Source: Panicum virgatum (lineage: Eukaryota > Streptophyta > Magnoliopsida > Poales > Poaceae). Taken from it: a stretch of DNA of 64,000 nt. Below the pieces are notes generated by a model. It saw only the letters and a list, made by a program, of their open reading frames with translations. It was not told where the DNA came from and ran no database searches. Position numbers and translations under genes: made by a program. The DNA is taken from contig NC_053141.1 of NCBI RefSeq assembly GCF_016808335.1, forward strand, positions 19,103,756-19,167,755, written 5' to 3'. This document shows, piece by piece, positions 2,267 through 63,300 of the stretch (its first letter is position 1; each line of letters starts with the position of its first letter).

Positions 2267-3738
2267 CTACTCTTGGGTCTGCTGTTGTTGTCGCTCCAAG
2301 TTGTGGATCCTCTCGCCTGTGTGTCGCTGCCAGTTCTGAGTTGCCTCGATGTGCTGGCCCAGGAATTCGTCGATGTTGGTGGTGCGCACGTTCATCTCGC
2401 CCATCTGTCGAGTCAGAGTGGCGAAACCTCTGGACGAGGCTGAACGTCTGGCGGAGATCGGGGGTCCACTAGAGCTGGAACTAGTGGACAGGCACCCTTG
2501 GGCCTGCCGTGCCCACTCCTCTGTACTTGCGTTGTGCCATGACGAACCTCCCGCCTCATGGTGGTATGAGGTTTGAGTATGCTGAGGCGGTGTTGGCGTT
2601 TCTTCCCTTCTGGTCCTGCTCCTTGTCATCTTGCCAGGTAAACCAAAAGCACTATGCCTACGGCCCCCTTCTCATTGAACGAGAGGGATGGTTAGTGCAC
2701 GACAATTATACAAATGGAAGTCCGCATTGGGCAGCGAAATCTCATTTGTATAGCCCATGAAGAGTCAGTCGGGCCTTTCTTAAGTGTGTGACCTTGAATC
2801 AAATAAGACTCATCTATATACGTGCGGTCACCCTCAATGAAGGGAATGGAATTCCCTTCTATGGCACTAACATGTGTAGCGATACGAGTAATCAATGAAG
2901 TACACTCAATAGGACCCGTCATGTTGAAATTCGAAAGCCATTGCTTAACCAAAGCTTGTGCGGGGGAGATTTTGATCTTGTTGACCATGGCATATAAAAT
3001 GATCAACTCGTCGTTGTGCATAGGTCGGACATCTTCTCTTGGAAAGAGAGTGATGGCTAACCACTTGTGCATCAAGCGAAGAGTTGGATTATGAATGTCA
3101 TTGCACCGGGGTGCAAATTTTCCATGGACAACTTGACCCGAAATCTGCCCCCAAAATTCATGACGATTAAAATTGCGGCAAGCTTGCTCAAGAGAAATCA
3201 GCCAGCGTTTGTTGAAATCGAGGTGGCTAGCAAAGGTTTTCCAAGAAAGCAAATAGTCCTTCCCGAAAAGTCGAAAATAAACCCCATTTTCCACCTCCCG
3301 AAGAGTGCAAAGGAATTGGATGGTGAGGAGCTGAGAACCGTACTCCTCAACGGGAGCGAAGTTGCTCCATCCAATTGCGTGCCAAACATTAGCGAAGTCT
3401 TCGTACATACCTGTTTTGATTAGGAGTTCCGGATTGAAGGCCCGGGTGTGGACGAAGCTTCGGTTTTTGATGATGGCGTAGGCTTGGCGCTCACGAGTGT
3501 CACGCAAGTCGAGGTAAGGAGCATCATCTTCATCAATTTCCATGGCCTCAGCTTGTAGTTCGGCTTGTAGTTCGGCTTGCACTTCTTCTTCTTGTTCGTC
3601 TTGTTCGTAGTCCATCGTGGTCGGTGTTGGTGTTGGTTCGGGGGAATGGCAAGAGCTTGACTCACCCCGCGAACGGGACGATTCTAACCTCGTCATCCTC
3701 TTGATGGCTCTGATTATCTTCCGACCTGCACCCTTCAT
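2267..3738 (-). pseudogene. Env-like ORF of A0 (resembles Athila ORF-1-type protein), broken
   Basis: An ATG at 3738 follows a 79-nt candidate intron. From there a frame is open to 2692 (348 codons). It begins with a basic R/S-rich stretch, continues through an acidic segment with M-D-Y-E-Q-D-E-Q and ends in a globular part containing F-R-L-F-G-K-D-Y and P-I-E-C-T-S-L. Near 2760 the frame shifts relative to the A1 copy, and the rest continues as a separate open stretch 2629-2267 with R-G-F-A-T-L-T-R-Q-M-G and a coiled-coil-like Q-rich end. No transmembrane segment or signal peptide is evident, so env-like refers only to the position usual in Athila elements. The family assignment is from memory and moderate; a generic plant retrotransposon protein is the alternative. 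The copy looks dead. Confidence 0.65.
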
Positions 3739-4072
3739 GCTTGCAACAAGAGCGAACAAGAACGAATGAGAACAACTAGATTCGGGTTACGTTAGTGAAA
3801 TGAAAATGAAACTCTTACCCGAATGTTGTTCCTCCGAGTGTGTAAATAATCTTGCAGCAAAGAAATGAGAGAGAGAGTTTTTTTGCAATCAAACTTGAGC
3901 CAAAATCCATTGAAAACCCGGGAGCAAAGTTTGAGAGAGTTTGAGAGGGAGTGAGTGAATGAGAGTTGAGTGTGAGAGCTTAACACCCACCTCTCAGCCT
4001 CTATATAAAGAGAGAATGGCCGGGCACCGTTGGGAGGAGCTGGGCACAACGGCTAGCAGCCGTTGGCAAAAG
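3739..4072 (-). promoter_or_regulatory. Internal promoter-like leader of the A0 env-like ORF
   Basis: On the minus strand there is a TATA-like CTTTATATAG (4001-4010), then a CT-rich leader, then a 79-nt candidate intron (3740-3818), then the ATG at 3738. The intron runs from CGG|GTAAGAG to TTGCAAG|C, contains a CTAAC branch-point-like motif and is T-rich. The same order and the same intron length occur in A1 at 30467-30735 despite sequence divergence. This suggests a separately transcribed and spliced mRNA for the ORF. The A0 sequence is cut at 4072 by the insertion of A1. Confidence 0.55.
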
Positions 4073-9600: not shown

Positions 9601-9698
9601 GTTGATCATGATGCCTTGTGTAGTTAAATTTGTTATTTAACTACTCTATAAACGATTGCCCATGTCTGTTTTTAATGTTTTTCTGACATTACATATAG

Positions 9699-10928
9699 AC
9701 ACGACTGTCTTATCGGACGGGACGTACGAGCTGATCCCGGAATCTGACGGAGGTGATCTCGAAGCTCAAGTAAACACTGCTGAACTAACTGAAGCCCCGA
9801 ACCAAAGTTCGGAAGAGCCTAGAGCTGAAATAGTTAGCGACTACCGAGAAGGCAAGCCCCGGACATAACCTATATTTCAAATTATTATCATTTACTGTTA
9901 TTACTTACTTGTGCATTTATAGTTCTTAGGATTTGAATTGAAACCCTAGATGCATGATCCTAGGAACCTATGTACTGAACACTAGACTTGAGTTCGACTA
10001 CTTGATAAGCTTATAGGACCGGTAAAAGTCGAGTGATTGCCTGTCACTCGCGAGCTTTATAGGAATTGCCTGTTTACTTTCTGTTATCAATATAAGGACA
10101 ACGGACGGGGTTGTGATCGATATCATGACTTTATGTGAGACCCCGTCTGTGTTGATGAACTTGCTAAGGTCGCGGTGTGTGGTAGTGCTGGTTAAGTTTT
10201 TGAAAGTACTAGTCACATGCCGTAAATATGGTACGCGGCAAGCCTAGTAGCCGATTAGACCGGGGAGTGGATATACCTTTCACTCTCTCAGTAGGGATAG
10301 GTTTTATTGTTATGTTGCGCAACATCACGACTTCAAGGGACAAGGTTCGGCCTTGGAGCCCTGTAGTCGGGGAGAGTGACCCTATCCACAAGCCGGAAAG
10401 AAAGGTCAACGGTTGTTTGGGAATGACCCGACGGTGTTCCAGACGTGTGTGCTAGGTTATCCTTGCAAGGTTGAATTTCGATTCAGAATCGTCCGCCTCT
10501 CATGATGAAATGAGACTGCTTGATCTCTTTGCCACACAGAATAAGAAGAGCAACAATACTTTAATCAATCTTGATGTTTGCTTAGATTTCTACCATGATT
10601 GGATAGTAGTTGCTGACATAGAATGGTTAATCAACTAGAATCTTGAAAGCTAAAACTTGGAAGTAAGGACATACTCTTTATTGCTTTTCAGAAAAAGGAA
10701 AGCCAGAGCCTCACAAAACCTTGCATAGTCTAGTTAAAGTGAGCTACTTATACCCGTTGGCGGTTAAGTCTTGCTGAGTATTAGAATACTCAGCCTTGCT
10801 GTTGAAACCCTTTTTCAGGTATGAGTTTTGAGGATCAGATCGCTAGCTTGACCTATCCTTGCTCATTGCCTCCTGGCTGGTCCGTAGAGTGGGATACGTC
10901 TGCGACCGGCAATGACTATGACGAGTGA
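9699..10928 (+). CDS. LTR-embedded small spliced gene, T1 5' LTR (two conserved exons)
   Basis: Exon-like block a, 9699-9851 (153 nt), follows the acceptor CATATAG and encodes L-S-D-G-T-Y-E-L-I-P near its start and an acidic remainder ending R-E-G; it stops at a GC-type donor, GAGAAG|GCAAGC. Block b, 10819-10928 (110 nt), follows TTTTTCAG and encodes F-E-D-Q-I-A-S-L then P-C-S-L-P-P-G-W-S-V-E-W-D, with a TGA at 10926-10928. Block a ends with one base of a codon and b begins with two, so joining them gives a glycine and keeps the frame. T2 and T3 have homologous blocks at the same LTR positions with many synonymous differences. I do not recognise the protein. No conserved start codon is visible; a tentative upstream exon ends at AGAG|GTGCGC (8552) but has no ATG, so the 5' end is unresolved. 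Confidence 0.6.
10773..10794 (+). promoter_or_regulatory. Perfect hairpin just upstream of the LTR exon b acceptor
   Basis: GCTGAGTATT and AATACTCAGC face each other across two bases, 24 nt before the exon b acceptor. The same hairpin occurs in the T1 3' LTR (21972-21993), T2 (32741-32762, 44622-44643) and T3 (51557-51578, 60841-60862), where the loop is slightly changed but the arms still pair. Confidence 0.75.
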
Positions 10929-11847: not shown

Positions 11848-12579
11848 TGTGAATACGCCTCTGAGTAGCGTATGCTAACGTTGGCCATACGGCGGGAATT
11901 GTATGGCTGCCGCTTCTATAGTGAGCGGTAATGTTTGGGAACGCTTTCATGAGTGCTGGCATGAAAGGTTCATTGGATATATATATATGTTCTGTCAATC
12001 TTATGCAGGTACACTAACCGTGATTCGATAAGTTAAGAACGCTTAGAATGTATCGACTAGCTATATAGGGAGAGCCGTATCTATGTTATACCACCGTGCT
12101 AACCACGTAAGCCCAACCTTAGTTGGCAATTGTTTATCTTGTGAGGAACGAACAGGACGTGCATGCATATTTGGTTAATGTTCTAATTGATTCCTAGTCT
12201 TTGAAGTTGTTACATGATCTTTTTAAGGAATTCCTAGTATGAATCCTCATAGATAAGTGTTAGTGTGCTTAAAACATGAGTGAGTGAAATTTTGATTTTA
12301 GTAGCATGCTTGTTAAATGCTTAGGTTTCCTTGGATGAAAAATATGGTTTCGAGTCATGCCTTCCTCCTAAGCCCCATCTTGTTGTTGTAAGGATCTTTT
12401 CATTCCTTAGAATCTCAAATGATGAACCAGTACCGATTGTGGTTTATTATTCTTTGAGTGTGGAACCATATCATCTTTTGATTTAGAATCATATTTGTTT
12501 TTCCGCAGTCTTCTTAAAGCTTTATTTGAGAAGTCTTGAGATAATCACATTACTCACATTTGAATCCTTTTTGATTCAG

Positions 12580-13482
12580 ATGGCGACTTGTTCCCAGGTC
12601 TTTTGGGATAAGGAGGGAAATGCTCATACCGACTGTCTGTACTGGGAGGGTTTTCCGAGGATTCTTTGGGATTCACTTCGTATCTTCCACTACCCAGATC
12701 CACCCCAGTACACGGGATGCCAGTTTTCTGAGGATGGAATTAAGAAGAACAGAGTTACAATGACCATTCCTCAGCACCCCGCCTTGGAGTGGCCACCGAT
12801 TGAGATTGAGGTGATTGGGTACCGTCTTGTGGATGCTTTTGAGAAAGCAGCTCTCAACGCTATCACCACTTTTTGTGAGCACCATCCCGAGGAGGTAGCT
12901 GCATATCCTATTGGTTTGTTTCCAGCAGTCAGTACTGGTAATGCAGAGTGGCTGTTCAGGGTCACACACTTTGGGCACTTGATTGGAGATGTAGCGGATG
13001 AGACTATCGAGGCAGTAGTCAGATATATAAATGCTCAGTCTCACTACCAGATACTTCAGCAGCGACACATGGACCAGGTGATAGACTTGGCCCAGAGTTT
13101 TTAGCGAGGCCTACGTTTGAGGGATAATCAGATTCAGGGACTTCAGGATGCCATTGCTGGGAGGGATACTGCCATTGCACAGTTTGAGCATCAGGCTATG
13201 GAGCATGGTGCTGAGATAGAGCAGCGCAACATAGTTATTGGTTTTCTTTAGGGGCAGGTGAATGAGCTTCAAGCAGATTGGGCTGATGCTTTAGCACATG
13301 TTGGTATGCTCCAGGAGCAACTAGATGCCCCAGCCGAGCCTGCAGCAGCAGAAGAGGACCCAGAGGAGATTGAGGGAGTATCTGACTTAGATTCAGAGCA
13401 CGCACTTGCTGAGCCTAACCCTCAGCCGGATGACTCTTCTTCCGGCAGTGCCTCTTCTGTGGGCAACCTCGACGACTTCTAG
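12580..13482 (+). pseudogene. Extra ORF upstream of gag in T1, two nonsense codons
   Basis: A 300-codon frame starts at ATG 12580, immediately after an acceptor-like TTTTTGATTCAG, and ends at the TAG 13480-13482. It is interrupted by TAG at 13102-13104 and 13249-13251. The protein is homologous along its length to the intact 299-codon ORF of T2: an N-terminal block with W-E-G-F-P-R-I-L-W, a T-M-T-I-P-Q-H-P motif, T-T-F-C followed by G-L-F-P-A, then a Q/D-rich coiled-coil-like part and an acidic tail with E-E-I-E-G-V-S-D-L-D-S-E. There is no zinc knuckle, protease or polymerase motif. Function is unknown; extra ORFs in this position are known in some plant Ty3/gypsy lineages. Confidence 0.8.
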
Positions 13483-18666: not shown

Positions 18667-21600
18667 TGTAACACCCCGGGTGTCTGCATAGTAATTAAAC
18701 AGGTGTCTGCACAGTAATTGTGTATGTTTGCTATGCATCATGTGCTTGAATTACTTAAAAAGGATCTTTTTGTAATTATGAAAGGTTATATGTGTAATTA
18801 TGATTTTATGCAAGGTCCTTTATATAGTTATTTATGAATATAGCTTTTGTGGAGGGTGTTTTTGTAAAATTTCAGTGCATTTAATGCATGGTAGCCAATT
18901 TTGCTTGTAAGTCTACATTTGAAGTGAAATTGCTTTGAAAAAGGCAAATTTCCTAGAATTCAAATTCCTTTCTATATTTTTAATTTTAGCTCTTGTATCT
19001 TTGGTCAAATAAATTTTTGCACAACATCATAGTTGTAGATCTTGAAAAGTTGAACAACTTTCATGTTGGGCACTTTTTCATTTGAGCCCTATTTTAAAAG
19101 TTATCGCTGGTTTACAGTTTAGTCCCTGGAATTTTTGGAAATTGCAAAATCGCCCTTATTCCCATCTCCCACCTCCCTGCTCTGCTTCTCGCCGCCGTCC
19201 ACCGACAGCGCCGCCCGCCGGCGCCTTCCCGGCCATTCCGGCCATTAATTCGCCGCGCGCTGGCACCCACGCGTCGCGGACGACCTCCTCCACCGCCCTC
19301 TAGCCTCGCGCTGGCCCTCTTCTTCCCGTGCCACGCGCCCCCGCAGCTTCCAGAGCCGCCTCGACGGCCGCCACCCGCGACGCCGCCGTGGACAGCCCCG
19401 GGCAGAGCACGCCGCCCTCTCTTCGCGCGCGCCCGGCCACTACAAAAGCCCCAGCAAGCTAATCCGTTCGCCCTTTCGCTTGCTCCTCGCTTCCAGACCC
19501 CAGAACACGCCGCCGCTCCACCGTGAACGCCGACGAGCTCCACCCCGCCGTTGGCTTGCTATTCCAGAGCCGCTCCGCCCAAATCGACCACGCAAATAGC
19601 TTTGCCTCCCTCTCGCGCAGCTCACGGGCTACTTCCCGTCAACCATCTTCCACCGGAGTCACCCCGCCGCCGTAGCCGAGCTCCTCAAGCCGCCGCTCGC
19701 CGTCGACATCCACTTTCCCGACCACCCCAGCCTCGATTCCAAGCACCCAGAGGTGCGCCTTGGAGCCCTTTTGCCCCCACTACTGTTTCCCCTCGCCACC
19801 GGTGAGCCCCTCGCCGGGAAACCGCCGGTCAAACCCGCGCCCCCCTCTGACCCGACCCGAGGACCTCGGTTTTGAAATTCCAGAGAACCCAGGGGGTTAT
19901 TTGAATAGGCCTAGACACATATGAATAGTGCCTTAGGGACTTCTTTGCTATGATTTTCAGTGAACTTTGAAATTCAATATCAATTCATAGAAAATTCGTA
20001 AAATAGAAAATCTTGATGTTTTGGAATCCTCTTGAAGATCTCTATGCAGTAGAACCATAATATGTTAGGATTTAGTTGCAAGTTTTTGCTGTAGAATTTG
20101 ATTTGTGTTACTAGTGCTTAAATATTAGTTGTTTTCATCTTTTTCTTAACTGCTGTATAAAGCCTTGTCTTGCAGGGAATCTTTTATGGTAGTTAACTCT
20201 TGTAACACTTGTTTTGCTATAAAAATTTCATGATCAGTTCTTTGGTGTAGCTATTTATTTGATTTAATCTTTGTTTAGTAGACTTTAATTTTGGTAAATA
20301 GTTTCTGTTCGTAATAAATCATGAATTTATTTCTGCATGCTCTTTCTAAGTAGTTTAGTTTGTCCAGGAGGTTTGAGCCTCAGTTCATGAATATAACAGG
20401 AGCTAAATTTGAATCTTGCCAAACTGATGTCTGTTTTGTTTATTTTCTCAGAATTAATTCTCTGTAGATAAAATCATGAAAAATTCACAATAGCTATATC
20501 ATCCCTGTGTAGACCTACTTTTAAATTTTGAGATCATGTTTTGTTTTAGTTTGACTAGTATAATTCAAACTTGTTCTAGGTGTTGTCTGAATGAATGAAT
20601 TGTTGTGATTAAATGGTTACATGTCTTGGCATGATTTTTACAGGGTAGCTTAATCTGTTCATGTTCTGTTTAGGGTAATGTTTTGGTAAATTAATTACTG
20701 TTTGTACTTTGAGTTATATGTTTATTTGCAAACATGGAAGTAATTGCTATAGGAATCCACCCCCACTTGTTCATGAAGTTAGTCAACTTCTTTTGTGCTG
20801 TTGATCATGATGCCTTGTGTAGTTAAATTTGTTATTTAACTACTCTATAAACGATTGCCCATGTCTGTTTTTAATGTTTTTCTAGCATTACATATAGACA
20901 CGACTGTCTTATCGGACGGGACGTACGAGCTGATCCCGGAATCTGACGGAGGTGATCTCGAAGCTCAAGTAAACACTGCTGAACTAACTGAAGCCCCGAA
21001 CCAAAGTTCGGAAGAGCCTAGAGCTGAAATAGTTAGCGACTACCGAGAAGGCAAGCCCCGGACATAACCTATATTTCAAATTATTATCATTTACTGTTAT
21101 TACTTACTTGTGCATTTACAGTTCTTAGGATTTGAATTGAAACCCTAGATGCATGATCCTAGGAACCTATGTACTGAACACTAGACTTGAGTTCGACTAC
21201 TTGCTAAGCTTATAGGACCGGTAAAAGTCGAGTGATTGCTTGTCACTCGCGAGCTTTATAGGAATTGCCTGTTTACTTTTTGTTATCAATATAAGGACGA
21301 CGGACGTGGTTGTGATCGATATCATGACTTTATGTGAGACCCCGTCTGTGTTGATGAACTTGCTAAGGTCGCGGTATGTGGTAGTGCTGGTTAAGTTTTT
21401 GAAAGTACTAGTCACATGCCGTAAATATGGTACGCGGCAAGCCTAGTAGCCGATTGGACCGGGGAGTGGATATACCTTTCACTCTCTCAGTAGGGATAGG
21501 TTTTATTGTTATGTTGCGCAACATCACGACTTCAAGGGACAATGTTCGGCCTTGGATCCCTGTAGTCGGGGAGAGTGACCCTATCCACAAGCCGGAAAGA

Positions 21601-22503
21601 AAGGTCAACGGCTGTTTGGGAATGACCCGACGGTGTTCCAGACGTGTGTGCTAGGTTATCCTTGCAAGGTTGAATTTTGATTCAGAATCGTCCGCCTCTC
21701 ATGATGAAATGAGACTGCTTGATCTCTTTGCCACACAGAGTAAGAAGAGCAACAATACTTTAATCAATCTTGATGTTTGCTTAGATTTCTACCATGATTG
21801 GATAGTAGTTGCTGACATAGAATGGTTAATCAACTAGAATCTTGAAAGCTAAAACTTGGAAGTAAGGACATACTCTTTATTGCTTTTCAGAAAAAGGAAA
21901 GCCAGAGCCTCACAAAACCTTGCATAGTCTAGTTAAAGTGAGCTACTTATACCCGTTGGCGGTTAAGTCTTGCTGAGTATTAGAATACTCAGCCTTGCTG
22001 TTGAAACCCTTTTTCAGGTATGAGTTTTGAGGATCAGATCGCTAGCTTGACCTATCCTTGCTCGTTGCCTCCTGGCTGGTCCGTAGAGTGGGATACGTCT
22101 GCGACTGGCAATGACTATGACGAGTGATACCATGCTTGGGCTAGCCTGGTATCCTTTTTGGGACGTGTTGTAGCCGTCGTGTTTTATCTTCCGCTATTTA
22201 AACCCTGAAGCTTTACCCTTATGGCTTGTATAACTGTTTTACTTAAGTTGGCTTTGTAAATAATGATTTGAACTAGTTTGTAATCACTACTGAACTTGCC
22301 TGTGTTGTAAAATTTGTGGTTGTAATATCTCTGGACTCGCCTTCGTGCGGGGTATGCTTGTTTGATCCGAGAATCAGTGGTTGTATCGGGACGTTACCCG
22401 ACAGACCAAGAATTGTTCCGTTTGAGGTGCGTTTAAGCTAATGTTGCCTTTATGGTGATTGCCTGCGCACTTGAGCCGGGATAATTTAGGCGGTTCTGCC
22501 ACA
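18667..22503 (+). repeat. 3' LTR of T1
   Basis: 3837 bp, starting TGTAACACCCCGGG and ending TTCTGCCACA, with the same internal order as the 5' LTR. It is followed by the target-site duplication GTCTC (22504-22508). Differences from the 5' LTR are scattered, as expected of independent mutation after insertion. Confidence 0.92.
20898..22127 (+). CDS. LTR-embedded small spliced gene, T1 3' LTR copy
   Basis: Block a is 20898-21050 and block b is 22018-22127, with the same acceptors, GC donor and phase as the 5' LTR copy. Both frames stay open. A visible change in block b, TCA to TCG in the P-C-S-L segment, is synonymous. Because it sits in the 3' LTR it would have its own upstream promoter, so it could be expressed independently of the rest of T1. 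Confidence 0.55.
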
Positions 22504-32241: not shown

Positions 32242-35200
32242 TGTGGCGGAACCACCCAAAACTACTGGGCCCGGGTGCACTGATCTTCGTTGCTAAGCAA
32301 CTCTGACCCAATTTCGGCACTCACCGGTAGTTCCTCGAGTGAAGCCTCGATAAAAGCCACGCTATTCCAGGATCAGCAGACAACACTCACACGAAGGTGA
32401 GCCCAGAGATTACAACACAAACCATTTCATACATCTCAGAGTGATTGCAGCGGAAAGAAAATTTATTACAAACCATGTTCAGAGTAGCACAGTACTACGG
32501 AGTTCCAACTACTCAATTATTTAAGTCTCATGTTCAGCGGAAGCATTAAAAGATAACTAACGAAATAACGTGACGCATCGGTAAAGCCCGTACGAATGCG
32601 TCACTCAGCGGGAGGGTGATTAGCACTAGCTGAAGGGCCATCCCACTCAACCGACCAACCCGGAGGCAGAGTACAAGGCCAAGTAAGACTCGCAAACAGA
32701 TCTTCAAAGTTAGTACCTGAAAAACAGTGCCACAAGCAAGGCTGAGTATACTAATACTCAGCAAGACTGACCCGTCTCCGGATATAACATAGTCCGATAA
32801 CTAGACATGCAAGGCTTTTTTTTGGTTGGTAGGGTTTGTTTGCCAAAAATGCCGCTAAGTGTTGATCCTTACTTTCAGGTTTTACTTAGCCAGATTCTAG
32901 TGGAATTAACCATTCTAAATTTGCAACTAACTCTACTCAAACATGGTAGAGCAACCATTTAATCAACCAGCCGTATTATCATCATCCTGTTCCACTTGTT
33001 ACTCTATGTGACCGAAATCATTAAGCAATCTCATGCCGTGAGAGGCGGACGATTCCGAATCGAATTTCAACCTGGCCAGGGGAACCTAGACCACACGCAT
33101 GGGGATTGACTTCGCTCCCGCCCACGCTACTTTTCCCCTTTCTTTCCAGTCCGTGGATCCGGGTCACCCTCCCCGACTACAGAGTCCGACCACTCTGCAC
33201 CCGTACGTCGCGACAAAAATATCAACCCTACTTCTACCAAGAGGGTGAATGGTCGTTCCACTCGCCGGTCCAATCAGGTACTTAAGCTTACCGATTACCA
33301 TATTTCTCGGTATGTGGCTAGTACTTTCAAACGCTTAACGAAATGAGCCACACACCACGACCTTAGCCATTTTTGACTATACCAGCGGGGTATCACAACT
33401 ACACAACCCCGCCCGTTGTCCTTACATTTCAACAGGAATTAAAGTCAGTACAATTCCTATTTGCTCGCGAGAGGCAGGAAACCACTCGACTTCTACCGTA
33501 CCTATTTAGCCTGGCAACTAGTCGATAAAAAGATCCGGTATCAAACATAGGTTCCTAGGGATCATGCATCTATGGTTTTCGATCAACGCCTAGAAAACTT
33601 AAATGCAGAAAAACAAAATATTACAGTACATTAATAAATAGATAGCTGAATGATAATTCGGAAAATAGTGGGATTATGCTCCGGGGCTTGCCTTCTTGGG
33701 CACTGTCAGGCCGAAAAGCTTCTGGAGCTTGGCCCAGGTCTTGAGACAAGTTAGTACAGTTCAGATTAATCTCCTGCTCCGCACGAGAGTCCGCGGGCAC
33801 CAGTTCGTAGTCTCCGTCCGTGAGATTACCCGTTTCTATATGCAATGCAAGATTATGAGTTATTCATGGATAACAATTTCTTTCCTTCACGATAAAGTTG
33901 TAGTCCACTTAAGTTATTTTAGTGCCGATTTCACATTTCATTGCATGGGCAATCGTTTATAGAGTAGTAAGCATAACTATGGTTATTCATGAATGAGTGG
34001 GGTTTTGGGTTTTCATTTTTAATTTCAACACATAACATGCTTTCATTATTTCTTAACATCACAACTACTAAAGAGCTAGTGATGAACACTAAAGTAACTC
34101 AGATTCAAAATAAGTAATTATGGTATAGATTTCAACATTTAACCATAAAGCAAAAACTATAACTAATCATGCAAAAGGATTACTCTAGTTACTTCATATT
34201 TTTGTACAGAATGTTCCACATGGATTCTGATGCTACAAATTTTATGCAAGCAACTTTCAAGCATGAACTCAGTACTGCAATTTTTCCAGATTTTATACAC
34301 TTATATAGCAGAGGTGATAAAAAGATTAAAAACAGCAAGCCATTTACAAAGATTAATTCTACAGAAAGTTTTACTGAGGATTTGGTTCTAAAATTTTTAC
34401 CAGAGACTATTCATGAGATATACATACTTCAGAAAATTTTTCAAGATTTAACTCACTATGATAAATTAATTATTCAGTTAACTTAGCATGAGTTTGCATA
34501 AAATTATCAAGGTGCATTTGACCAGTATTGCATTTGAACTTTTTATTACAGATATAATATACTCTAAACAAGATCATGCCCAAAAATCATGCCCAGAAAC
34601 ATTGTGGATTACTCAAAACAAAAATAGTAAACCTAACCATAAGATGCTAAGCATGATTATTCGACAAAGCCAAACTCAGTAACTGCAGCTCAAAATTTTT
34701 AGACAGGAACACAGAGCTAAAATGAGACTCCAGAAATAAACATGGATTTTTCTGAACATAACAACTATATATGAGGAATTAAGTTGATTAAACAAGCATA
34801 AATCATGGTATATAGCAAATGAACTCTAATAAATCTGAAATTTAGGTATTAGCAGTGTTCTCGTTTTACATGCACGCAGTAAAAATTTCAGAGCAAGTTC
34901 GTGTGCATATTTTCCAGAATTAAATCGAGAAAGCTAACCACAGATTAGAGAATCTTGATTGTTCTAACATGATAACTGTTGTGGTTTGGTGTCATCTTTT
35001 TACTGTGACCTTATCATCCTATTAGTGATAACATATCCAAAAATCAAGGTCATTTGATGAGCAGAACTTCATGAACATGCACAAGGTGGTTTTCTTAATC
35101 TTTTTCCTAGATTAAATTCGGTTGAGTTTCTGCAAATGTGAATGTTACAAAATTTGTAGATTTTGTTACAATGATTCCAGATCAGTTGAGTTTGCATTTT

Positions 35201-41822: not shown

Positions 41823-42722
41823 CTACATGTTGACCGATGCCTCACTCGCCGCGGGAGTGTGAACCTCAACCGGCGCGGGCTGCGGCGCCTGGTCCTCGGA
41901 GTCCATCTCTGAAACGCCCTCTATCTCCTGGGGCTCGTCCTCCTCGTCCACCTGCATCTCGTCGGGAGGTGCGTGAAGGGCATCCTGCGCGTGCTGTATC
42001 GCGTGGAGCTGCCCCTGAGCCTCGTCCACCTCAAGCTGCAGGTCGTGAAACTGGTCCTCCAGGAAGTTGATCGTAGCGTCACGATCCGACACAGTGTCCT
42101 GAAGCTCGTGAACCTGGCCGTGGAGCTGGGCGATAAGAGTAGCCCTGCTCTCGAGCTCGGTACTAGCCTCCTGAAGCTGCCCATCTCTCAGCTGGACTGC
42201 CAGGTGCAAGGCCTGAGCGTGGTCCACCAACTGAGCGACGGCGTAACTCTGGTAAGTGTGAAGCCTGTAGAGGCCGTCCAAGCACATCGCTGTCGTCCGA
42301 AGTGCCCCGACCGGGTCAAGGGTAGCGACCACATCCACGTGTGCCATCCGGTCGAGCCAAAGCGGGTCTGCCGGGTCAGGTGCAGGGAACAACCCGAACG
42401 CGGTCAGAACTACCTCCAGAGGGCGCAAAGAGCAAAAGGTGGTCATCGCCCTCATGGCGGTAAGCTCCCAGGTGTCCAACAGGTAGTGACCGACCATCTG
42501 AGTCACGATCGGCTCCCACCCGTTGAGCGGGTGCTGCGGAATCACCATTGTCACACTGCAGCGACGAACTCCGTCCTCCACAAACTCGTGGCCATCGTAA
42601 ACCGGTGGCTGGAGGTAACCGGCTGCACTCAAAAGCTCCCAAAGACGGCGGGGAAACCCGTCCCAGTGCAGGCAGGCGGAGTGCACGTGCCCCTGCGCGT
42701 CAACGACCAGCAGCTCTTCCAT
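41823..42722 (-). CDS. Extra ORF upstream of gag in T2, intact (299 codons)
   Basis: The ATG at 42722 abuts an acceptor-like TTTTGTTGGGACAG; I chose it over the upstream TTG because of that junction and the match to T1. The protein has an N-terminal block with H-W-D-G-F-P-R-R-L-W, then T-M-V-I-P-Q-H-P, T-T-F-C and G-L-F-P-A-P. A long amphipathic, Q/L/D-rich stretch (about residues 165-250) looks like a coiled coil, and the tail is acidic with E-I-E-G-V-S-E-M-D-S-E. It is homologous to the broken T1 ORF and nearly the same length. No catalytic motif, signal peptide or membrane segment is visible. It could be a structural or RNA-binding accessory protein; that is inference. Confidence 0.85.
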   Translation of the reverse strand: MEELLVVDAQGHVHSACLHWDGFPRRLWELLSAAGYLQPPVYDGHEFVEDGVRRCSVTMVIPQHPLNGWEPIVTQMVGHYLLDTWELTAMRAMTTFCSLRPLEVVLTAFGLFPAPDPADPLWLDRMAHVDVVATLDPVGALRTTAMCLDGLYRLHTYQSYAVAQLVDHAQALHLAVQLRDGQLQEASTELESRATLIAQLHGQVHELQDTVSDRDATINFLEDQFHDLQLEVDEAQGQLHAIQHAQDALHAPPDEMQVDEEDEPQEIEGVSEMDSEDQAPQPAPVEVHTPAASEASVNM

Positions 42723-44122: not shown

Positions 44123-47100
44123 TGTGGCGGAACCACCCAAAACTACTGGGCCCGGGTGCACTGATCTTCGTTGCTAAGCAACTCTGACCCAATTTCGGCA
44201 CTCACCGGTAGTTCCTCGAGTGAAGCCTCGATAAAAGCCACGCTATTCCAGGATCAGCAGACAACACTCACACGAAGGTGAGCCCAGAGATTACAACACA
44301 AACCATTTCATACATCTCAGAGTGATTGCAGCGGAAAGAAAATTTATTACAAACCATGTTCAGAGTAGCACAGTACTACGGAGTTCCAACTACTCAATTA
44401 TTTAAGTCTCATGTTCAGCGGAAGCATTAAAAGATAACTAACGAAATAACGTGACGCATCGGTAAAGCCCGTACGAATGCGTCACTCAGCGGGAGGGTGA
44501 TTAGCACTAGCTGAAGGGCCATCCCACTCAACCGACCAACCCGGAGGCAGAGTACAAGGCCAAGTAAGACTCGCAAACAGATCTTCAAAGTTAGTACCTG
44601 AAAAACAGTGCCACAAGCAAGGCTGAGTATACTAATACTCAGCAAGACTGACCCGTCTCCGGATATAACATAGTCCGATAACTAGACATGCAAGGCTTTT
44701 TTTTGGTTGGTAGGGTTTGTTTGCCAAAAATGCCGCTAAGTGTTGATCCTTACTTTCAGGTTTTACTTAGCCAGATTCTAGTGGAATTAACCATTCTAAA
44801 TTTGCAACTAACTCTACTCAAACATGGTAGAGCAACCATTTAATCAACCAGCCGTATTATCATCATCCTGTTCCACTTGTTACTCTATGTGACCGAAATC
44901 ATTAAGCAATCTCATGCCGTGAGAGGCGGACGATTCCGAATCGAATTTCAACCTGGCCAGGGGAACCTAGACCACACGCATGGGGATTGACTTCGCTCCC
45001 GCCCACGCTACTTTTCCCCTTTCTTTCCAGTCCGTGGATCCGGGTCACCCTCCCCGACTACAGAGTCCGACCACTCTGCACCCGTACGTCGCGACAAAAA
45101 TATCAACCCTACTTCTACCAAGAGGGTGAATGGTCGTTCCACTCGCCGGTCCAATCAGGTACTTAAGCTTACCGATTACCATATTTCTCGGTATGTGGCT
45201 AGTACTTTCAAACGCTTAACGAAATGAGCCACACACCACGACCTTAGCCATTTTTGACTATACCAGCGGGGTATCACAACTACACAACCCCGCCCGTTGT
45301 CCTTACATTTCAACAGGAATTAAAGTCAGTACAATTCCTATTTGCTCGCGAGAGGCAGGAAACCACTCGACTTCTACCGTACCTATTTAGCCTGGCAACT
45401 AGTCGATAAAAAGATCCGGTATCAAACATAGGTTCCTAGGGATCATGCATCTATGGTTTTCGATCAACGCCTAGAAAACTTAAATGCAGAAAAACAAAAT
45501 ATTACAGTACATTAATAAATAGATAGCTGAATGATAATTCGGAAAATAGTGGGATTATGCTCCGGGGCTTGCCTTCTTGGGCACTGTCAGGCCGAAAAGC
45601 TTCTGGAGCTTGGCCCAGGTCTTGAGACAAGTTAGTACAGTTCAGATTAATCTCCTGCTCCGCACGAGAGTCCGCGGGCACCAGTTCGTAGTCTCCGTCC
45701 GTGAGATTACCCGTTTCTATATGCAATGCAAGATTATGAGTTATTCATGGATAACAATTTCTTTCCTTCACGATAAAGTTGTAGTCCACTTAAGTTATTT
45801 TAGTGCCGATTTCACATTTCATTGCATGGGCAATCGTTTATAGAGTAGTAAGCATAACTATGGTTATTCATGAATGAGTGGGGTTTTGGGTTTTCATTTT
45901 TAATTTCAACACATAACATGCTTTCATTATTTCTTAACATCACAACTACTAAAGAGCTAGTGATGAACACTAAAGTAACTCAGATTCAAAATAAGTAATT
46001 ATGGTATAGATTTCAACATTTAACCATAAAGCAAAAACTATAACTAATCATGCAAAAGGATTACTCTAGTTACTTCATATTTTTGTACAGAATGTTCCAC
46101 ATGGATTCTGATGCTACAAATTTTATGCAAGCAACTTTCAAGCATGAACTCAGTACTGCAATTTTTCCAGATTTTATACACTTATATAGCAGAGGTGATA
46201 AAAAGATTAAAAACAGCAAGCCATTTACAAAGATTAATTCTACAGAAAGTTTTACTGAGGATTTGGTTCTAAAATTTTTACCAGAGACTATTCATGAGAT
46301 AAACATACTTCAGAAATTTTTTCAAGATTTAACTCACTATGATAAATTAATTATTCAGTTAACTTAGCATGAGTTTGCATAAAATTATCAAGGTGCATTT
46401 GACCAGTATTGCATTTGAACTTTTTATTACAGATATAATATACTCTAAACAAGATCATGCCCAAAAATCATGCCCAGAAACATTGTGGATTACTCAAAAC
46501 AAAAATAGTAAACCTAACCATAAGATGCTAAGCATGATTATTCGACAAAGCCAAACTCAGTAACTGCAGCTCAAAATTTTTAGACAGGAACACAGAGCTA
46601 AAATGAGACTCCATAAATAAACATGGATTTTTCTGAACATAACAACTATATATGAGGAATTAAGTTGATTAAACAAGCATAAATCATGGTATATAGCAAA
46701 TGAACTCTAATAAATCTGAAATTTAGGTATTAGCAGTGTTCTCGTTTTACATGCACGCAGTAAAAATTTCAGAGCAAGTTCGTGTGCATATTTTCCAGAA
46801 TTAAATCGAGAAAGCTAACCACAGATTAGAGAATCTTGATTGTTCTAACATGATAACTGTTGTGGTTTGGTGTCATCTTTTTACTGTGACCTTATCATCC
46901 TATTAGTGATAACATATCCAAAAATCAAGGTCATTTGATGAGCAGAACTTCATGAACATGCACAAGGTGGTTTTCTTAATCTTTTTCCTAGATTAAATTC
47001 GGTTGAGTTTCTGCAAATGTGAATGTTACAAAATTTGTAGATTTTGTTACAATGATTCCAGATCAGTTGAGTTTGCATTTTTCTGATTTTTCTGTGATTT

Positions 47101-50876: not shown

Positions 50877-51057
50877 GCTTGGGGGAGTTGTTGATGGAGC
50901 TTAAGTGCCAAATCCGACCGTCAACTGTACTCAATAATAAAGGAAAACTATACGCCTTACTCACATATTTGTATCAGTAACCTTGCTCCACAGTTGTTTT
51001 CGAGTTTTGTACATTTCAGATGAGCAAGAGTAGAATAAGACAAAAACACACAGCAGT
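50877..51057 (+). repeat. Polypurine tract and truncated 3' LTR of A1
   Basis: GCTTGGGGGAGT (50877-50888) precedes TGTTGATGGAGC, the LTR start. The LTR matches 4073 onward for 169 bp and is then cut by T3 at 51058; the last five bases, GCAGT, should be the T3 target-site duplication. The rest of this LTR should lie beyond 64000. Confidence 0.8.
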
Positions 51058-54000
51058 TGTGGCGGAACCACCCAAAACTACTGGGCCCGGGTGCACTGAT
51101 CTTTGTTGCTAAGCAACTCTGACCCAAATTAGCACTCACTGGTAGTTCCTCGAGTGAAGCCTCGATAAAAGCCACGCTATTCCAGGATCAGCAGACAACA
51201 CTCACACGAAGGTGAGCCCAGAGATTACAACATAGGACATTTCATACATCTCAGAGTTTGCAGCGGAAAGGAAAAATTTATTACAACCATGTTCAGAATA
51301 GTAAGTACTACAGAGTTCCAAACTACACACATTATTCAAGTGTCATAGTTCAGCGGCAGCATTAAAAGGTATCTAGCGAAATAACGTGACGCATCGATAA
51401 AGCCCGTACGAAAGCGTCACTTAGCGGGAGGGTGGTCAGCACCAGCTGAAGGACCATCCCACTCAAAAGACCAGCCCGGAGGCAAGGTACACGGCCAAGC
51501 AAGACTTGCAAACAGATCTTCGAAGTTAGTACCTGAAAAACAGTGCCACAAGCAAGGCTGAGTATACTAATACTCAGCAAGACTGACCCGTCACCGGATA
51601 TAACATAGTCCGATAACTAGACATGCAAGGCTTTTTGGTTGGTGGGGTTTGTTTGCCAAAAATGCCACTAAGAGTTGGTCCTTATTTTCAGATTTTATCT
51701 AGCCATCTTCTAGTTGGATTAACCATTCTAATTTGCAACTAACTCTACACAAATATGGTAGAGCAATCATTTAATCAACCAGCAGTATTATCATCATCAT
51801 GTTCCACTTGTTACTCTATGTGACCGAAAACATTAAGCAGTCTCATGCCGTGAGAGGCGGACGATTCTGAATCGGATTTCAACCTGGCCAGGGGAACCTA
51901 GACCACACGTATGGGAACCAAGTCACCCACACAACATTTCCCCTTTCTTTCCAGTCCGTGGATCCGGAACACCCTCCCTGACTACAGAGCCCGACGTCTC
52001 TGCACCCGTACGTCCGGACAAAAAAATAAAACCTACTTCTACCAAGAGGGTGCGAGATCGTTCCACTCGCTGGTCCAATCAGGTACTTCAGCTTACCGAT
52101 TACCATATTTCTCGGCATGTGGCTAGTACTTTCAAACGCTTAACGAAATGAGCCACACACCGCGACCTTAGCCATTTTGCCTACACCAGCGGGGTATCAC
52201 AACTACACAACCCCGCCCGTTGTCCTTATATTTCAGCAGGAATTAAAGTCAGTAAAATTCCTATATGCTCGCGAGAGGCAGGAAACCCCTCGACTTCTAC
52301 CGTACCTAATTAGCATGGCAACTAGTCGATAAAAAGATCCGGGTATCAAACATAGGTACCTAGGGATCATGCACCTAAGGTTTTCGATCAACTCCTAGAA
52401 AACGTAAATGCGCAATAAAAATTATTACAACATATACAAATAGTAAGATGAATATAAGGCGTAAAATAATGGGATTATGCACCGGGGCTTGCCTTCTTGG
52501 GCACTGTTCAAAGGTAGCCTTGGGCTCTTCCGAACATTGGTTCGGGTCTTGATTCAAGTCAGTACAACTAAGGGAGACACTCTCCGGAGTGGTAGTATTC
52601 GCGGGCACCAACTCGTAATCACCGTCGAGTAGATTTACCGTTTCTATATGCATGCAGAAATGATATTGTTACAACATAACATAAATATATTTCTTTCCTT
52701 CACTATAAAGTTGTAGTCCAGAATAGCACGTGTTTGTTGTGGTGGTCTTAGTTAACTTTATTTTCTGGGCAATCGTTTATAGAGTAGTTCTTAATTTCAC
52801 TTTACTTCATAAAAGAGCTGTGTGTTTTGATTTTTATTCTTATCATTAAAACATAGCAGACTTTCACTATTTCATAGCAACCAATTTACTCATGAGCTAG
52901 TGATGAAAAACTAAAGTAACTCAAATCAGGTACTTTAGCATCTATGGTATAGTTTTCAGCATCTAATCATAAAGCAATTATCCATAACAAAGCATGTAAT
53001 TAGATTACTCTAGTTGCTTCACCTTTTTGCACAGCAAGTTTGACATGGGTTATGGTGCTACAAATTTTATGGGAGCATCTACCAAGCATCTACTCAGTAC
53101 TGTAATTTTTCCAGATTTTGTTCACTTATGTAGCTGAGGTAATAAAAAGAACAAAAACAACAAGCCATTAACTAAGATTAATTCTCCAGAGAGTTGTACT
53201 AGGTATATGATTGTCAAATTTTTACCAGAGCCTATTCATGAGCTAAACAAACTCCAGAAAAATTATCGAGCTTTATAACCACCAGATAAATTAGTTATGC
53301 ATTTAACTTAACATGATTTAGCATAAATTTCTTAAGGTGCATTTAACCAGTACTACATATGAAATTTTTATTACAGATAGAACATACTGTAAGCAAGATC
53401 ATATCCAAAAATCAAGATCAGTTATGTTATAGATTACTCAGAACAAAAATAGTAAATCTAGCCCTAAGATGCTAAGCATGATTATTCAACAAAGAAAAAC
53501 TCAGTAACTGCAGCTCAAAATTTTTAGACAGGAACATATAGCTAAAAAGAGACTTCAGAAATAAATATAGATTTTTCTGAGCATAAGAACTATATATGGA
53601 GAATTAAGTTGATTAAACAAGCATAAAACATGGTATATAGTAAATGAACTCAAATAAATCTGAAATTTATGGATTCACAAGATTTCAGTTACACATGTAT
53701 GCAGTAAAAATTCCAGAGCAAGTTCATGTGCATATTTTCCAGTATTAAATCAAAAAAAGCTAGCAACAGATTAGAGAATCTTGATTGTTCTAACATGATA
53801 ACTGTTTTGGTTGGGTGTCATTTTTTTACTGTGATCTTAATATTCCATTAGTGATAACATACCCAAAAATCAAGGTCATTTGCTGAGTATAACTTCATGA
53901 ACATGCATAAGGTGATTTTCTTATTCTTTTTCTCAGATTAAAATAAAGGCAAAATATGAACATATGAATGTAACAAAAGTTGTAGTTCTTGTTTCAAGGA

Positions 54001-55784: not shown

Positions 55785-55820
55785 GCCTACCCCCCTTAAA
55801 AAGAATCTCGCCCCGAGATT
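55785..55820 (-). other. T3 polypurine tract and hairpin
   Basis: On the minus strand AATCTCGGGGCGAGATT (55820-55804), then TTTTTAAGGGGGGTAGGCT up to 55785, directly before the LTR. The hairpin keeps its stem with one loop change. Confidence 0.8.
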
Positions 55821-55859
55821 CAGGTGAATAAACTAAGTGTGGACAGTGTGCGTGCCTTT

Positions 55860-56760: not shown

Positions 56761-56779
56761 CTTGACGATTTTCGCAGGA

Positions 56780-57660: not shown

Positions 57661-57667
57661 TTAGAAA

Positions 57668-60327: not shown

Positions 60328-60339
60328 GCTCTGATGCCA
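60328..60339 (-). other. Primer-binding site of T3, one mismatch
   Basis: GCTCTGATGCCA on the plus strand, the complement of TGGCATCAGAGC; one base differs from the tRNA-Met site of T1 and T2. It is two bases from the LTR edge at 60342. Confidence 0.85.
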
Positions 60340-60341
60340 GC

Positions 60342-63300
60342 TGTGGCGGAACCACCCAAAACTACTGGGCCCGGGTGCACTGATCTTTGTTGCTAAGCAA
60401 CTCTGACCCAAATTAGCACTCACCGGTAGTTCCTCGAGTGAAGCCTCGATAAAAGCCATGCTATTCCAGGATCAGCAGACAACACTCACACGAAGGTGAG
60501 CCCAGAGATTACAACATAGGACATTTCATACATCTCAGAGTTTGCAGCGGAAAGGAAAAATTTATTACAACCATGTTCAGAATAGTAAGTACTACAGAGT
60601 TCCAAACTACACACATTATTCAAGTGTCATAGTTCAGCGGCAGCATTAAAAGGTATCTAGCGAAATAACGTGATGCATCGATAAAGCCCGTACGAAAGCG
60701 TCACTCAGCGGGAGGGTGGTCAGCACCAGCTGAAGGACCATCCCACTCAAAAGACCAGCCCGGAGGCAAGGTACACGGCCAAGCAAGACTTGCAAACAGA
60801 TCTTCGAAGTTAGTACCTGAAAAACAGTGCCACAAGCAAGGCTGAGTATACTAATACTCAGCAAGACTGACCCGTCACCGGATATAACATAGTCCGATAA
60901 CTAGACATGCAAGGCTTTTTGGTTGGTGGGGTTTGTTTGCCAAAAATGCCACTAAGAGTTGGTCCTTATTTTCAGATTTTATCTAGCCATCTTCTAGTTG
61001 GATTAACCATTCTAATTTGCAACTAACTCTACACAAATATGGTAGAGCAATCATTTAATCAACCAGCAGTATTATCATCATCATGTTCCACTTGTTACTC
61101 TATGTGACCGAAAACATTAAGCAGTCTCATGCCGTGAGAGGCGGACGATTCTGAATCGGATTTCAACCTGGCCAGGGGAACCTAGACCACACGTATGGGA
61201 ACCAAGTCACCCACACAACATTTCCCCTTTCTTTCCAGTCCGTGGATCCGGAACACCCTCCCCGACTACAGAGCCCGACGTCTCTGCACCCATACGTCCG
61301 GACAAAAAAATAAAACCTACTTCTACCAAGAGGGTGCGAGATCGTTCCACTCGCTGGTCCAATCAGGTACTTCAGCTTACCGATTACCATATTTCTCGGC
61401 ATGTGGCTAGTACTTTCAAACGCTTAACGAAATGAGCCACACACCGCGACCTTAGCCATTTTGCCTACACCAGCGGGGTATCACAACTACACAACCCCGC
61501 CCGTTGTCCTTATATTTCAGCAGGAATTAAAGTCAGTAAAATTCCTATATGCTCGCGAGAGGCAGGAAACCCCTCGACTTCTACCGTACCTAATTAGCAT
61601 GGCAACTAGTCGATAAAAAGATCCGGGTATCAAACATAGGTACCTAGGGATCATGCACCTAAGGTTTTCGATCAACTCCTAGAAAACGTAAATGCGCAAT
61701 AAAAATTATTACAACATATACAAATAGTAAGATGAATATAAGGCGTAAAATAATGGGATTATGCACCGGGGCTTGCCTTCTTGGGCACTGTTCAAAGGTA
61801 GCCTTGGGCTCTTCCGAACATTGGTTCGGGTCTTGATTCAAGTCAGTACAACTAAGGGAGACACTCTCCGGAGTGGTAGTATTCGCGGGCACCAACTCGT
61901 AATCACCGTCGAGTAGATTTACCGTTTCTATATGCATGCAGAAATGATATTGTTACAACATAACATAAATATATTTCTTTCCTTCACTATAAAGTTGTAG
62001 TCCAGAATAGCACGTGTTTGTTGTGGTGGTCTTAGTTAACTTTATTTTCTGGGCAATCGTTTATAGAGTAGTTCTTAATTTCACTTTACTTCATAAAAGA
62101 GCTGTGTGTTTTGATTTTTATTCTTATCATTAAAACATAGCAGACTTTCACTATTTCATAGCAACCAATTTACTCATGAGCTAGTGATGAAAAACTAAAG
62201 TAACTCAAATCAGGTACTTTAGCATCTATGGTATAGTTTTCAGCATCTAATCATAAAGCAATTATCCATAACAAAGCATGTAATTAGATTACTCTAGTTG
62301 CTTCACCTTTTTGCACAGCAAGTTTGACATGGGTTATGGTGCTACAAATTTTATGGGAGCATCTACCAAGCATCTACTCAGTACTGTAATTTTTCCAGAT
62401 TTTGTTCACTTATGTAGCTGAGGTAATAAAAAGAACAAAAACAACAAGCCATTAACTAAGATTAATTCTCCAGAGAGTTGTACTAGGTATATGATTGTCA
62501 AATTTTTACCAGAGCCTATTCATGAGCTAAACAAACTCCAGAAAAATTATCGAGCTTTATAACCACCAGATAAATTAGTTATGCATTTAACTTAACATGA
62601 TTTAGCATAAATTTCTTAAGGTGCATTTAACTAGTACTACATATGAAATTTTTATTACAGATAGAACATACTGTAAGCAAGATCATATCCAAAAATCAAG
62701 ATCAGTTATGGTATAGATTACTCAGAACAAAAATAGTAAATCTAGCCCTAAGATGCTAAGCATGATTATTCAACAAAGAAAAACTCAGTAACTGCAGCTC
62801 AAAATTTTTAGACAGGAACATATAGCTAAAAAGAGACTTCAGAAATAAATATAGATTTTTCTGAGCATAAGAACTATATATGGAGAATTAAGTTGATTAA
62901 ACAAGCATAAAACATGGTATATAGTAAATGAACTCAAATAAATCTGAAATTTATGGATTCACAAGATTTCAGTTACACATGTATGCAGTAAAAATTCCAG
63001 AGCAAGTTCATGTGCATATTTTCCAGTATTAAATCAAAAAAAGCTAGCAACAGATTAGAGAATCTTGATTGTTCTAACATGATAACTGTTTTGGTTGGGT
63101 GTCATTTTTTTACTGTGATATTAATATTCCATTAGTGATAACATACCCAAAAATCAAGGTCATTTGCTGAGTATAACTTCATGAACATGCATAAGGTGAT
63201 TTTCTTATTCTTTTTCTCAGATTAAAATAAAGGCAAAATATGAACATATGAATGTAACAAAAGTTGTAGCTCTTGTTTCAAGGATTTCAGAACATTTTAG

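What the first reader, a model, noticed from the sequence alone, without database searches (positions are those of the whole stretch)
9699..10928. LTRs of three Tekay families encode two short exon-like blocks conserved at the protein level
At equivalent places in all six LTRs (T1 9699-10928 and 20898-22127; T2 33835-32601 and 45716-44482; T3 52643-51417 and 61927-60701) there is a block with D-G-x-Y-E-L-[IV]-P and a second with F-E-D..A-S-L..P-C-x-L-P-P-G-W-S-x-E-W-D ending at a stop codon. Between families the codons differ mainly at third positions (GGG/GGT/GGA, GAG/GAA, GCT/GCG/GCA, AGC/AGT, TGC/TGT, CCT/CCG, TCC/TCG/TCT) while the residues stay the same. That is the mark of selection on a protein, in a part of the element normally regarded as noncoding. 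I know of no described LTR-encoded protein of this kind.
Basis: seen in the sequence. Interest (0 to 1): 0.93.

Follow-up and report, generated by a model that had tools for sequence, protein, structure and literature searches.

The report
Spliced mini-gene inside retrotransposon LTRs
The terminal repeats of these grass retrotransposons, usually taken as noncoding, carry a small two-exon gene whose joined form occurs in public sequence data and whose amino acids are conserved between families while its silent sites are not; its product is likely a helper protein of the element, though what it does is untested.

Summary
In each LTR the two blocks are the exons of one small gene: exon 1 ends at a GC splice donor (AAG|GCAAGC), exon 2 starts after TTTCAG, and in T1, T2 and a fourth family (T4) the phases fit, so a Gly codon spans the joint. 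I predicted this joint from the window; protein searches then returned six public ORFs, among 248 retrieved, that run straight across it. In genomic copies the exons lie 940-983 bp apart. The joined DNA is absent from the 1.13-Gb genome (0 matches for three families), against 2,929 matches for one unspliced donor sequence. Exon 2 differs between families mostly at silent sites (pS 0.57-0.89, pN 0.08-0.14), and a blind scan ranks exon 2 and exon 1, in these frames, first and second on the coding strand.

Against universality: T2 has no ATG in the joined frame and a stop just upstream; T3, which lacks RT, is out of frame at the joint. The product is acidic (pI about 4), gives only a low-confidence structure, and has no significant Pfam match. 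Best reading: an LTR-encoded, spliced accessory protein; its function is inferred. Seven literature searches turned up no description.

The parts
9640..9661 (+). T1 5' LTR: core-promoter-like element ACTACTCTATAAACGATTGCCC upstream of exon 1 (TATA-like 9647-9652)
   Evidence: all but invariant in the 12 copies aligned, flanks diverged; promoter role inferred, not tested
9662..9698 (+). T1: in-frame ATG (9662) and 12 codons leading to exon 1; ends in CATATAG, a candidate but unproven 3' splice site
   Evidence: ATG not conserved between copies; CATxTAG found in 83 of 83 copies with a regex that demands it
9699..9851 (+). T1 5' LTR exon 1 coding block, ends at donor AAG|GC
9852..10818 (+). T1 5' LTR GC-AG intron, 967 nt
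   Evidence: joined form of this type in P0002, P0008, P0037, P0121, P0122, P0127
10773..10794 (+). perfect 9-bp hairpin GCTGAGTAT-TAGA-ATACTCAGC, ends 24 nt before the acceptor in this LTR
   Evidence: (present in 83 of 83 copies, by a regex that demands its 5' part)
10819..10928 (+). T1 5' LTR exon 2 coding block with stop
20898..21050 (+). T1 3' LTR exon 1
22018..22127 (+). T1 3' LTR exon 2 with stop
33692..33835 (-). T2 3' LTR exon 1
32717..33691 (-). T2 3' LTR GC-AG intron, 975 nt
32601..32716 (-). T2 3' LTR exon 2 with stop
45573..45716 (-). T2 5' LTR exon 1
44482..44597 (-). T2 5' LTR exon 2 with stop
52493..52643 (-). T3 3' LTR exon 1 (151 nt; out of frame with exon 2 at this donor)
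51417..51532 (-). T3 3' LTR exon 2 with stop
61777..61927 (-). T3 5' LTR exon 1 (out of frame with exon 2)
60701..60816 (-). T3 5' LTR exon 2 with stop

Best explanation
Each LTR of these elements carries a small two-exon gene: exon 1 (T1 9699-9851) and exon 2 (10819-10928) flank a GC-AG intron of about 0.95 kb, their joined form occurs in public sequence data, and the joined product, an acidic chain of about 85-120 residues that is likely an accessory factor of the element, is conserved mainly at the amino-acid level. Likely working: a transcript from the LTR promoter would either keep the intron and serve as genomic RNA, or lose it and serve as messenger for the small protein. The weak GC donor and the hairpin before the acceptor would keep splicing partial. 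That no intron-free LTR of three families was found in the genome is what would be seen if only unspliced RNA is reverse transcribed. Shown here: the exon structure, the junction in sequence data, the coding constraint, the absence of matches to joined exon DNA. Inferred: the promoter, the RNA origin of the junction ORFs, partial splicing, translation, and the role; for the role, help with expression or anti-silencing of the element seems likelier than a structural part, since the chain is short and acidic and no confident fold was predicted.
For: (1) The junction was predicted from the window before any protein search. The query was the predicted T1 joint, and P0002, P0008 and P0037 cross the same joint (SDYREG|MSFEDQ, SYAQEG|NTFEDM, SYAQEG|ETFEDM). 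P0121 (T2-like, SAQEG|TNFEDL), P0122 and the more distant P0127 followed. P0131 (33 member sequences) is the unspliced twin of P0008. (2) In the genome the halves of P0008 lie 0.94 kb apart; its exon 1 is matched at 98% in 6 copies, and exon 2 at 94% lies 943 nt further on in copies such as C5:60860120. (3) Joined-exon DNA: 0 matches with up to 3 mismatches for T2, T4 and T1, against 1,442 + 1,487 for the unspliced T4 donor sequence and 0 for its reversed control. (4) Regexes for donor, hairpin and acceptor fitted 83 of 96 sequences, introns 940-983 nt; four of the fetched loci are the window's own T1 and T2 LTRs again, so 79 of 92 places. (5) Coding constraint. (6) T1 and T2 keep the frame; T2 has an uninterrupted gag-pol and T1 the same domains in broken frames; T3, which is out of frame, has no detectable RT. 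(7) pI about 4.05.
Against: The T2 family (6 distinct sequences at 30 places) has no Met in the joined frame and an in-frame stop just upstream, so its start must be non-AUG or lie on an unseen exon; in T1 and T4 copies the in-frame ATG is also inconsistent. The T3 frame, out of phase at the joint in the window copies, is shared by all 150 matches scored (the best of 7,130 candidates for a T3-frame query, so a leaning sample); T3 is abundant all the same. The six junction ORFs come from unnamed metagenome-type sources; that they are RNA is inferred from the missing DNA joint, and some may come from other species. No peptide or ribosome data. Two other ORFs (P0064, P0113) join the same donor to sequence not found in the window or the 90 loci, so exon 1 may also splice elsewhere. 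Intron and flanks are conserved too (intron identity T1-T2 0.70, T2-T3 0.92), so DNA-level constraint acts as well.
Confidence: 0.72

Rival explanations
1. The two blocks are the last two exons of a longer spliced protein: an upstream exon would be joined at the conserved CATxTAG just before exon 1 and supply the start codon.
For: CATxTAG in 83 of 83 copies although the residue varies I/V/L (the regex demanded it); the coding signal starts close to it; no ATG in T2; stops just upstream in T2 and many T4 copies.
Against: P0008, P0037 and P0121 read straight through the CATxTAG site; a search for longer proteins (142-451 residues) holding the exons gave 14 hits among 35 candidates, exon 2 copies without exon 1 or any recognisable upstream exon; in roughly 1 kb upstream, none of the best-listed third-position-biased windows is free of stops (seven listed per pair and window size).
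Confidence: 0.17
2. The joined frame is a conserved-peptide upstream ORF: its nascent chain would act in cis on ribosomes, controlling translation of the accessory or gag-pol frames further down the same RNA, and no free protein is needed.
For: The frame lies in the 5' LTR upstream of the 5'aORF and gag; the strongest conservation is towards the C-terminus, and the last residue before the stop is Glu in the full-length T1, T2 and T4 copies and in the six junction ORFs.
Against: A variable tail of 10-12 residues separates the conserved core from the stop; no AUG in T2; the first 14 residues of exon 1 are also somewhat conserved.
Confidence: 0.12
3. Constraint acts on DNA or RNA (promoter, packaging, structure) and the reading frames are incidental.
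For: Intron and leader stretches are conserved as well; the hairpin before the acceptor is nearly invariant.
Against: Third-position bias in two exons in consistent phase, junction ORFs with exactly the predicted joint, and frame kept through length changes of 9 nt in exon 1 and 6 nt in exon 2 (T1 against T2).
Confidence: 0.04

Closest known systems
Additional ORFs (aORFs, eORFs) of plant Ty3/gypsy elements, including the Tekay 5'aORF (PMC11728184, PMC7264820, PMC6317226: passages seen)
   Same: Extra coding capacity outside gag-pol, conserved within families, often without a known domain; the same elements here also carry a 5'aORF (T2 41823-42734, T1 12580-13479).
   Different: The passages sort aORFs as 5' or 3' of gag-pol and mostly describe frames of hundreds of codons (one of 70); none in those passages lies in the LTR. 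This one lies wholly inside the LTR, so each element has two copies, and is about 90 codons in two exons. The T1 5'aORF found no match in the LTR exons at E 1e-3.
CERV of the nematode retrotransposon Cer1 (PMC10309623: passages seen)
   Same: Accessory protein made from a spliced message while the unspliced RNA is the genome; a similar division of labour is inferred here.
   Different: CERV is 517 residues from five exons, partly sharing gag sequence; the LTR protein is about 90 residues, acidic (pI about 4) and poor in basic residues, so a Rev-like export role is not indicated by its sequence.
Ogre and EVD-type splicing of plant LTR retrotransposons (PMC6317226 passages for Ogre; EVD splicing recalled)
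   Same: Intron removed from only part of the transcripts (in our case inferred).
   Different: In Ogre the intron separates parts of the polyprotein; here donor, intron and acceptor all lie within the LTR.
Retroviral proteins encoded in an LTR, e.g. MMTV superantigen (recalled, no call)
   Same: Protein coded in the terminal repeat from a spliced message.
   Different: No sequence or size similarity claimed; U3 location in MMTV, here downstream of the TATA-like element.

Membership tests
Plant LTR-retrotransposon accessory ORF (aORF) | Conserved coding frame in the element besides gag-pol | tested here: met
Plant LTR-retrotransposon accessory ORF (aORF) | Lies in the internal region, 5' or 3' of gag-pol, outside the LTR (location outside the LTR is recalled; the passages give only 5' or 3' of gag-pol) | tested here: not met
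   Both exons lie inside the LTR in all six window copies
U2-type GC-AG intron | Donor AG|GC(A)AG and acceptor AG at the exon ends | tested here: met
   GAAG|GCAAGC and TTTCAG| in the window LTRs and the 83 of 96 sequences that fitted regexes demanding them; the consensus itself is recalled
U2-type GC-AG intron | Removed from RNA | tested here: inconclusive
   Six ORFs cross the joint and the joined DNA is absent from the genome, but the libraries cannot be shown to be RNA
Tekay chromovirus (host element) | gag-PR-RT-RH-INT order with 3' chromodomain | tested here: inconclusive
   T2 and T1 show all pol domains in order; the Chromo match is 21.8 and 23.7 bits, below the 25.1 cut-off
Tekay chromovirus (host element) | RT phylogeny | not tested
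Conserved-peptide uORF | AUG-initiated frame upstream of a main frame | tested here: not met
   No Met in the T2 joined frame (0 of 6 distinct sequences); T1 window copies and P0002, P0008, P0037 do have one
Conserved-peptide uORF | Peptide-dependent control of the downstream frame | not testable with these tools
   needs a reporter assay
CERV- or Rev-like export factor | Basic RNA-binding region | tested here: not met
   T1 21 acidic to 2 basic residues, T2 16 to 2, T4 19 to 3

The most novel reading that the evidence does not exclude
A new kind of retroelement gene: a complete spliced protein gene living inside the LTR, so that each insertion carries it twice and each solo LTR would still carry it, with an intron that must be kept in the genome RNA and removed from the message; its small acidic product would act in trans on the thousands of related LTRs (for example against silencing or on LTR transcription), letting non-autonomous relatives such as T3 drop the frame.
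Probability: 0.3. Interest if true: 0.88.

Novelty: new variant of a known kind. Interest (0 to 1): 0.74.

Why it matters
LTRs are annotated as noncoding control regions and masked before gene finding. If they encode a conserved spliced protein in thousands of copies, then (1) a player in the biology of a very successful grass retrotransposon group has been overlooked; (2) solo LTRs and LTRs near genes could express or donate coding exons (P0064 and P0113 look like such cases); (3) the choice between genome RNA and messenger becomes testable at one splice site; and (4) the more than a thousand short unnamed ORFs in metagenome-type data that matched here (a few are named hypothetical protein) are likely host LTR sequence.

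Tried and rejected
Rejected: two separate short peptides, because phases, donor and acceptor fit one joint and database ORFs confirm it. Selection against AUG in exon 1: counts are low but expected from the dinucleotides. An upstream coding exon in about 1 kb of U3: none seen. A longer fused protein: none among 14 hits. A known domain: five of the six junction ORFs were scanned and Pfam gave only E 0.18-0.2 matches below cut-off; PDB profile best E 0.27; Rfam none. Structure: six-sequence alignment, pLDDT 55, pTM 0.16, so no fold search was made. IMG/VR: 31 stretches matched a pattern, none a relative. Spare leads: the other parts of P0064, P0113 and P0048 found no convincing match in the window or the 90 loci. 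The hairpin folds only 1.1-1.9 sd below shuffles and hardly varies, so there is no covariation evidence.

Rows left out: 13 of 96 sequences did not fit the donor, hairpin and acceptor regexes (L061 seems to fail for a changed base after the acceptor; the others were not read one by one). Four of the 96 are window LTRs fetched again (L001, L002, L037, L041). L055 and T3 were left out of the codon counts, T3 out. In one search the T1 comparisons did not list exon 2: windows of 40 codons with a stop were dropped and the T1 open frame there is only 40 codons. Genome matches are best-scored samples (40, or 150 of more than 7,000 candidates), so copy counts are lower bounds and young copies are over-represented. 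Protein lists show 120 of 1,073 and 120 of 3,779 hits.

Full report
Setting. The window lies at G000:C6:19103756-19167755 of a 1.13-Gb assembly in 627 contigs. Its size, and hits spread over large contigs C1 to C18, suggest switchgrass; that is recalled, not tested. T2 has an uninterrupted 1535-codon gag-pol with PR, RT, RNase H, integrase and a weak chromodomain match. T1 has the same domains in broken frames. T3 keeps a gag-like N-terminus and zinc-knuckle region and integrase remnants, but no RT beyond an E 7.8 match.

Anatomy. Block 1 and block 2 are in phase for one splice. Block 1 ends ...GAA G|GC AAG, the strong form of a GC donor (consensus recalled). Block 2 follows a pyrimidine tract and CAG, then GT ATG AGT (T1), GT ACT AAC (T2, T3) or GA AAT ACT (a fourth family, T4). 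Joining gives GG(T/A), Gly. I collected 90 genomic loci and the 6 window LTRs; four loci are window LTRs again. Regexes demanding donor, hairpin and acceptor fitted 83 of the 96 (79 of 92 places), with introns of 940-983 nt. In 80 of the 83 the donor is in the expected phase; the two T3 LTRs and L055 are not. A 9-bp hairpin with a TAGA or TAGT loop, nearly invariant, ends 23-26 nt before the acceptor.

The junction in sequence data. With the predicted T1 joint as query, a search of 5.8 billion predicted proteins gave 1,073 hits, 120 listed. Most of the listed ones are unspliced exon 1 reading on into the intron (...EGKPRT), but three cross exactly the predicted joint. A profile search (3,779 hits, 120 listed) added P0121, P0122 and the divergent P0127. 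Of 248 proteins retrieved in three searches and sorted by regex, 6 cross the joint, 213 match the unspliced EGKP-type pattern, 14 hold exon 2 without exon 1, and 15 are other: 11 look like unspliced variants, and P0064 and P0113 join the same donor to foreign sequence. All six junction ORFs are from JGI sources. They cannot be copies of this genome's DNA: the joined 27- to 30-mers of T2, T4 and T1 have 0 matches at up to 3 mismatches, while a 27-mer over the unspliced T4 donor has 2,929. The halves of P0008 lie 0.94 kb apart in genomic copies. I infer that these ORFs come from spliced RNA, some of it of this or a very near host.

Selection. Nei-Gojobori between families: exon 2 core (26 codons) pS 0.88, pN 0.14 (T1-T2); 0.57, 0.14 (T1-T4); 0.89, 0.08 (T2-T4). 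Both exons together: dN/dS 0.20, 0.28, 0.25. First 14 codons of exon 1: pN 0.18-0.35 against pS 0.32-0.75. Exon 1 tail: dN/dS 0.67, 0.35, 0.79; tail of exon 2: T1-T4 even 3.5 on few sites. So exon 2 is under strong constraint, the start of exon 1 moderate, the rest weak. A blind scan over independent pairs ranks exon 2 and exon 1 first and second for third-position bias on the coding strand. A 40-codon whole-LTR scan of T2 against T3 ranks exon 2 first of the 91 stop-free windows kept, out of 855; the T1 comparisons of that call did not list it, since its open frame in T1 is too short for the filter. A finer whole-LTR scan of T2-T3 alone is not decisive: several windows with stops reach p-values as low or lower.

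What does not fit. T2 copies have no Met in the joined frame and a stop six codons upstream of the LHIET stretch. T1 window copies do have an in-frame ATG at 9662 (99 codons in all), and P0002, P0008 and P0037 have in-frame ATGs. The CATxTAG before exon 1 looks like a further acceptor, but P0008, P0037 and P0121 read through it. T3 has an exon 1 of 151 nt and meets a stop right after the joint; its frame is shared by the 150 matches scored with a T3-frame query. Since T3 lacks RT it may depend on others, and loss of an accessory frame would then be tolerated; that is inference. Between T2 and T3 exon 1 is 65% identical while the intron is 92% and the 350 nt after exon 2 are 94%, with divergence rising from just before the TATA-like element, so an exchange of that segment is as likely as fast evolution.

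Mechanism. The TATA-like element 45-150 bp upstream of exon 1 places the gene at the start of the LTR transcript (inferred). Reverse transcription rebuilds LTRs from packaged RNA, so packaging of spliced RNA should leave intron-free LTRs; none was found for the three families searched. The economical model is partial splicing: unspliced RNA is the genome, spliced RNA is the messenger of the LTR protein. The product is acidic and poor in basic residues; its model is of low confidence, from six sequences, which fits disorder but does not prove it. A structural or RNA-binding role is therefore less likely than a regulatory one; this last step is a guess.

Known relatives. Extra ORFs are well described in plant Ty3/gypsy elements, including a 5'aORF of Tekay (PMC11728184 passages; PMC7264820 one passage; PMC6317226 passages). 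T1 and T2 carry a 5'aORF too. I found no report of a coding exon pair or GC-AG intron inside an LTR (listings read; passages of five papers seen; the library holds open-licence papers only). CERV of Cer1 is the nearest functional analogue seen (PMC10309623 passages).

Verdict. It is one spliced mini-gene in the LTR, conserved as protein in T1, T2 and T4 and out of frame in a non-autonomous relative. Function, start codon and host range of the gene are open.

Noticed in passing
window 11869-12168 (T1), 43404-43667 and 59600-59886 (T2, T3, minus strand): Conserved leader stretch after the 5' LTR with two hairpins, one showing a paired A-T to G-C change (CTTTC[AG]TGAGTGCTGGCA[TC]GAAAG), followed by a 3'-splice-site-like TGCAG|GTA; possible packaging or splice signal.
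   Followed up: partly
window 41823-42734 (-) and 12580-13479 (+): Tekay-type 5'aORF, uninterrupted frame of 303 codons in T2, broken into two frames in T1; 34% identical over 277 residues.
   Followed up: partly
window 51054-64000: T3 is a non-autonomous relative of T2: LTR and leader alike, no detectable RT, degenerate integrase, yet at least 150 copies in the genome.
   Followed up: partly
window T2 LTR about 33692-34043 against T3: The stretch from just before the TATA-like element to the end of exon 1 is only 55-79% identical between T2 and T3 (60-column steps) while the LTR downstream is 79-100%; exchange or fast evolution.
   Followed up: partly
P0064, P0113: LTR exon 1 joined at the same GC donor to sequence not found in the window or the 90 loci; the LTR may donate a first exon to neighbouring transcripts.
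   Followed up: no
window 2692-3759 (-): ORF of 355 codons matching the ATHILA ORF-1 family (Pfam, E 4.7e-12).
   Followed up: no
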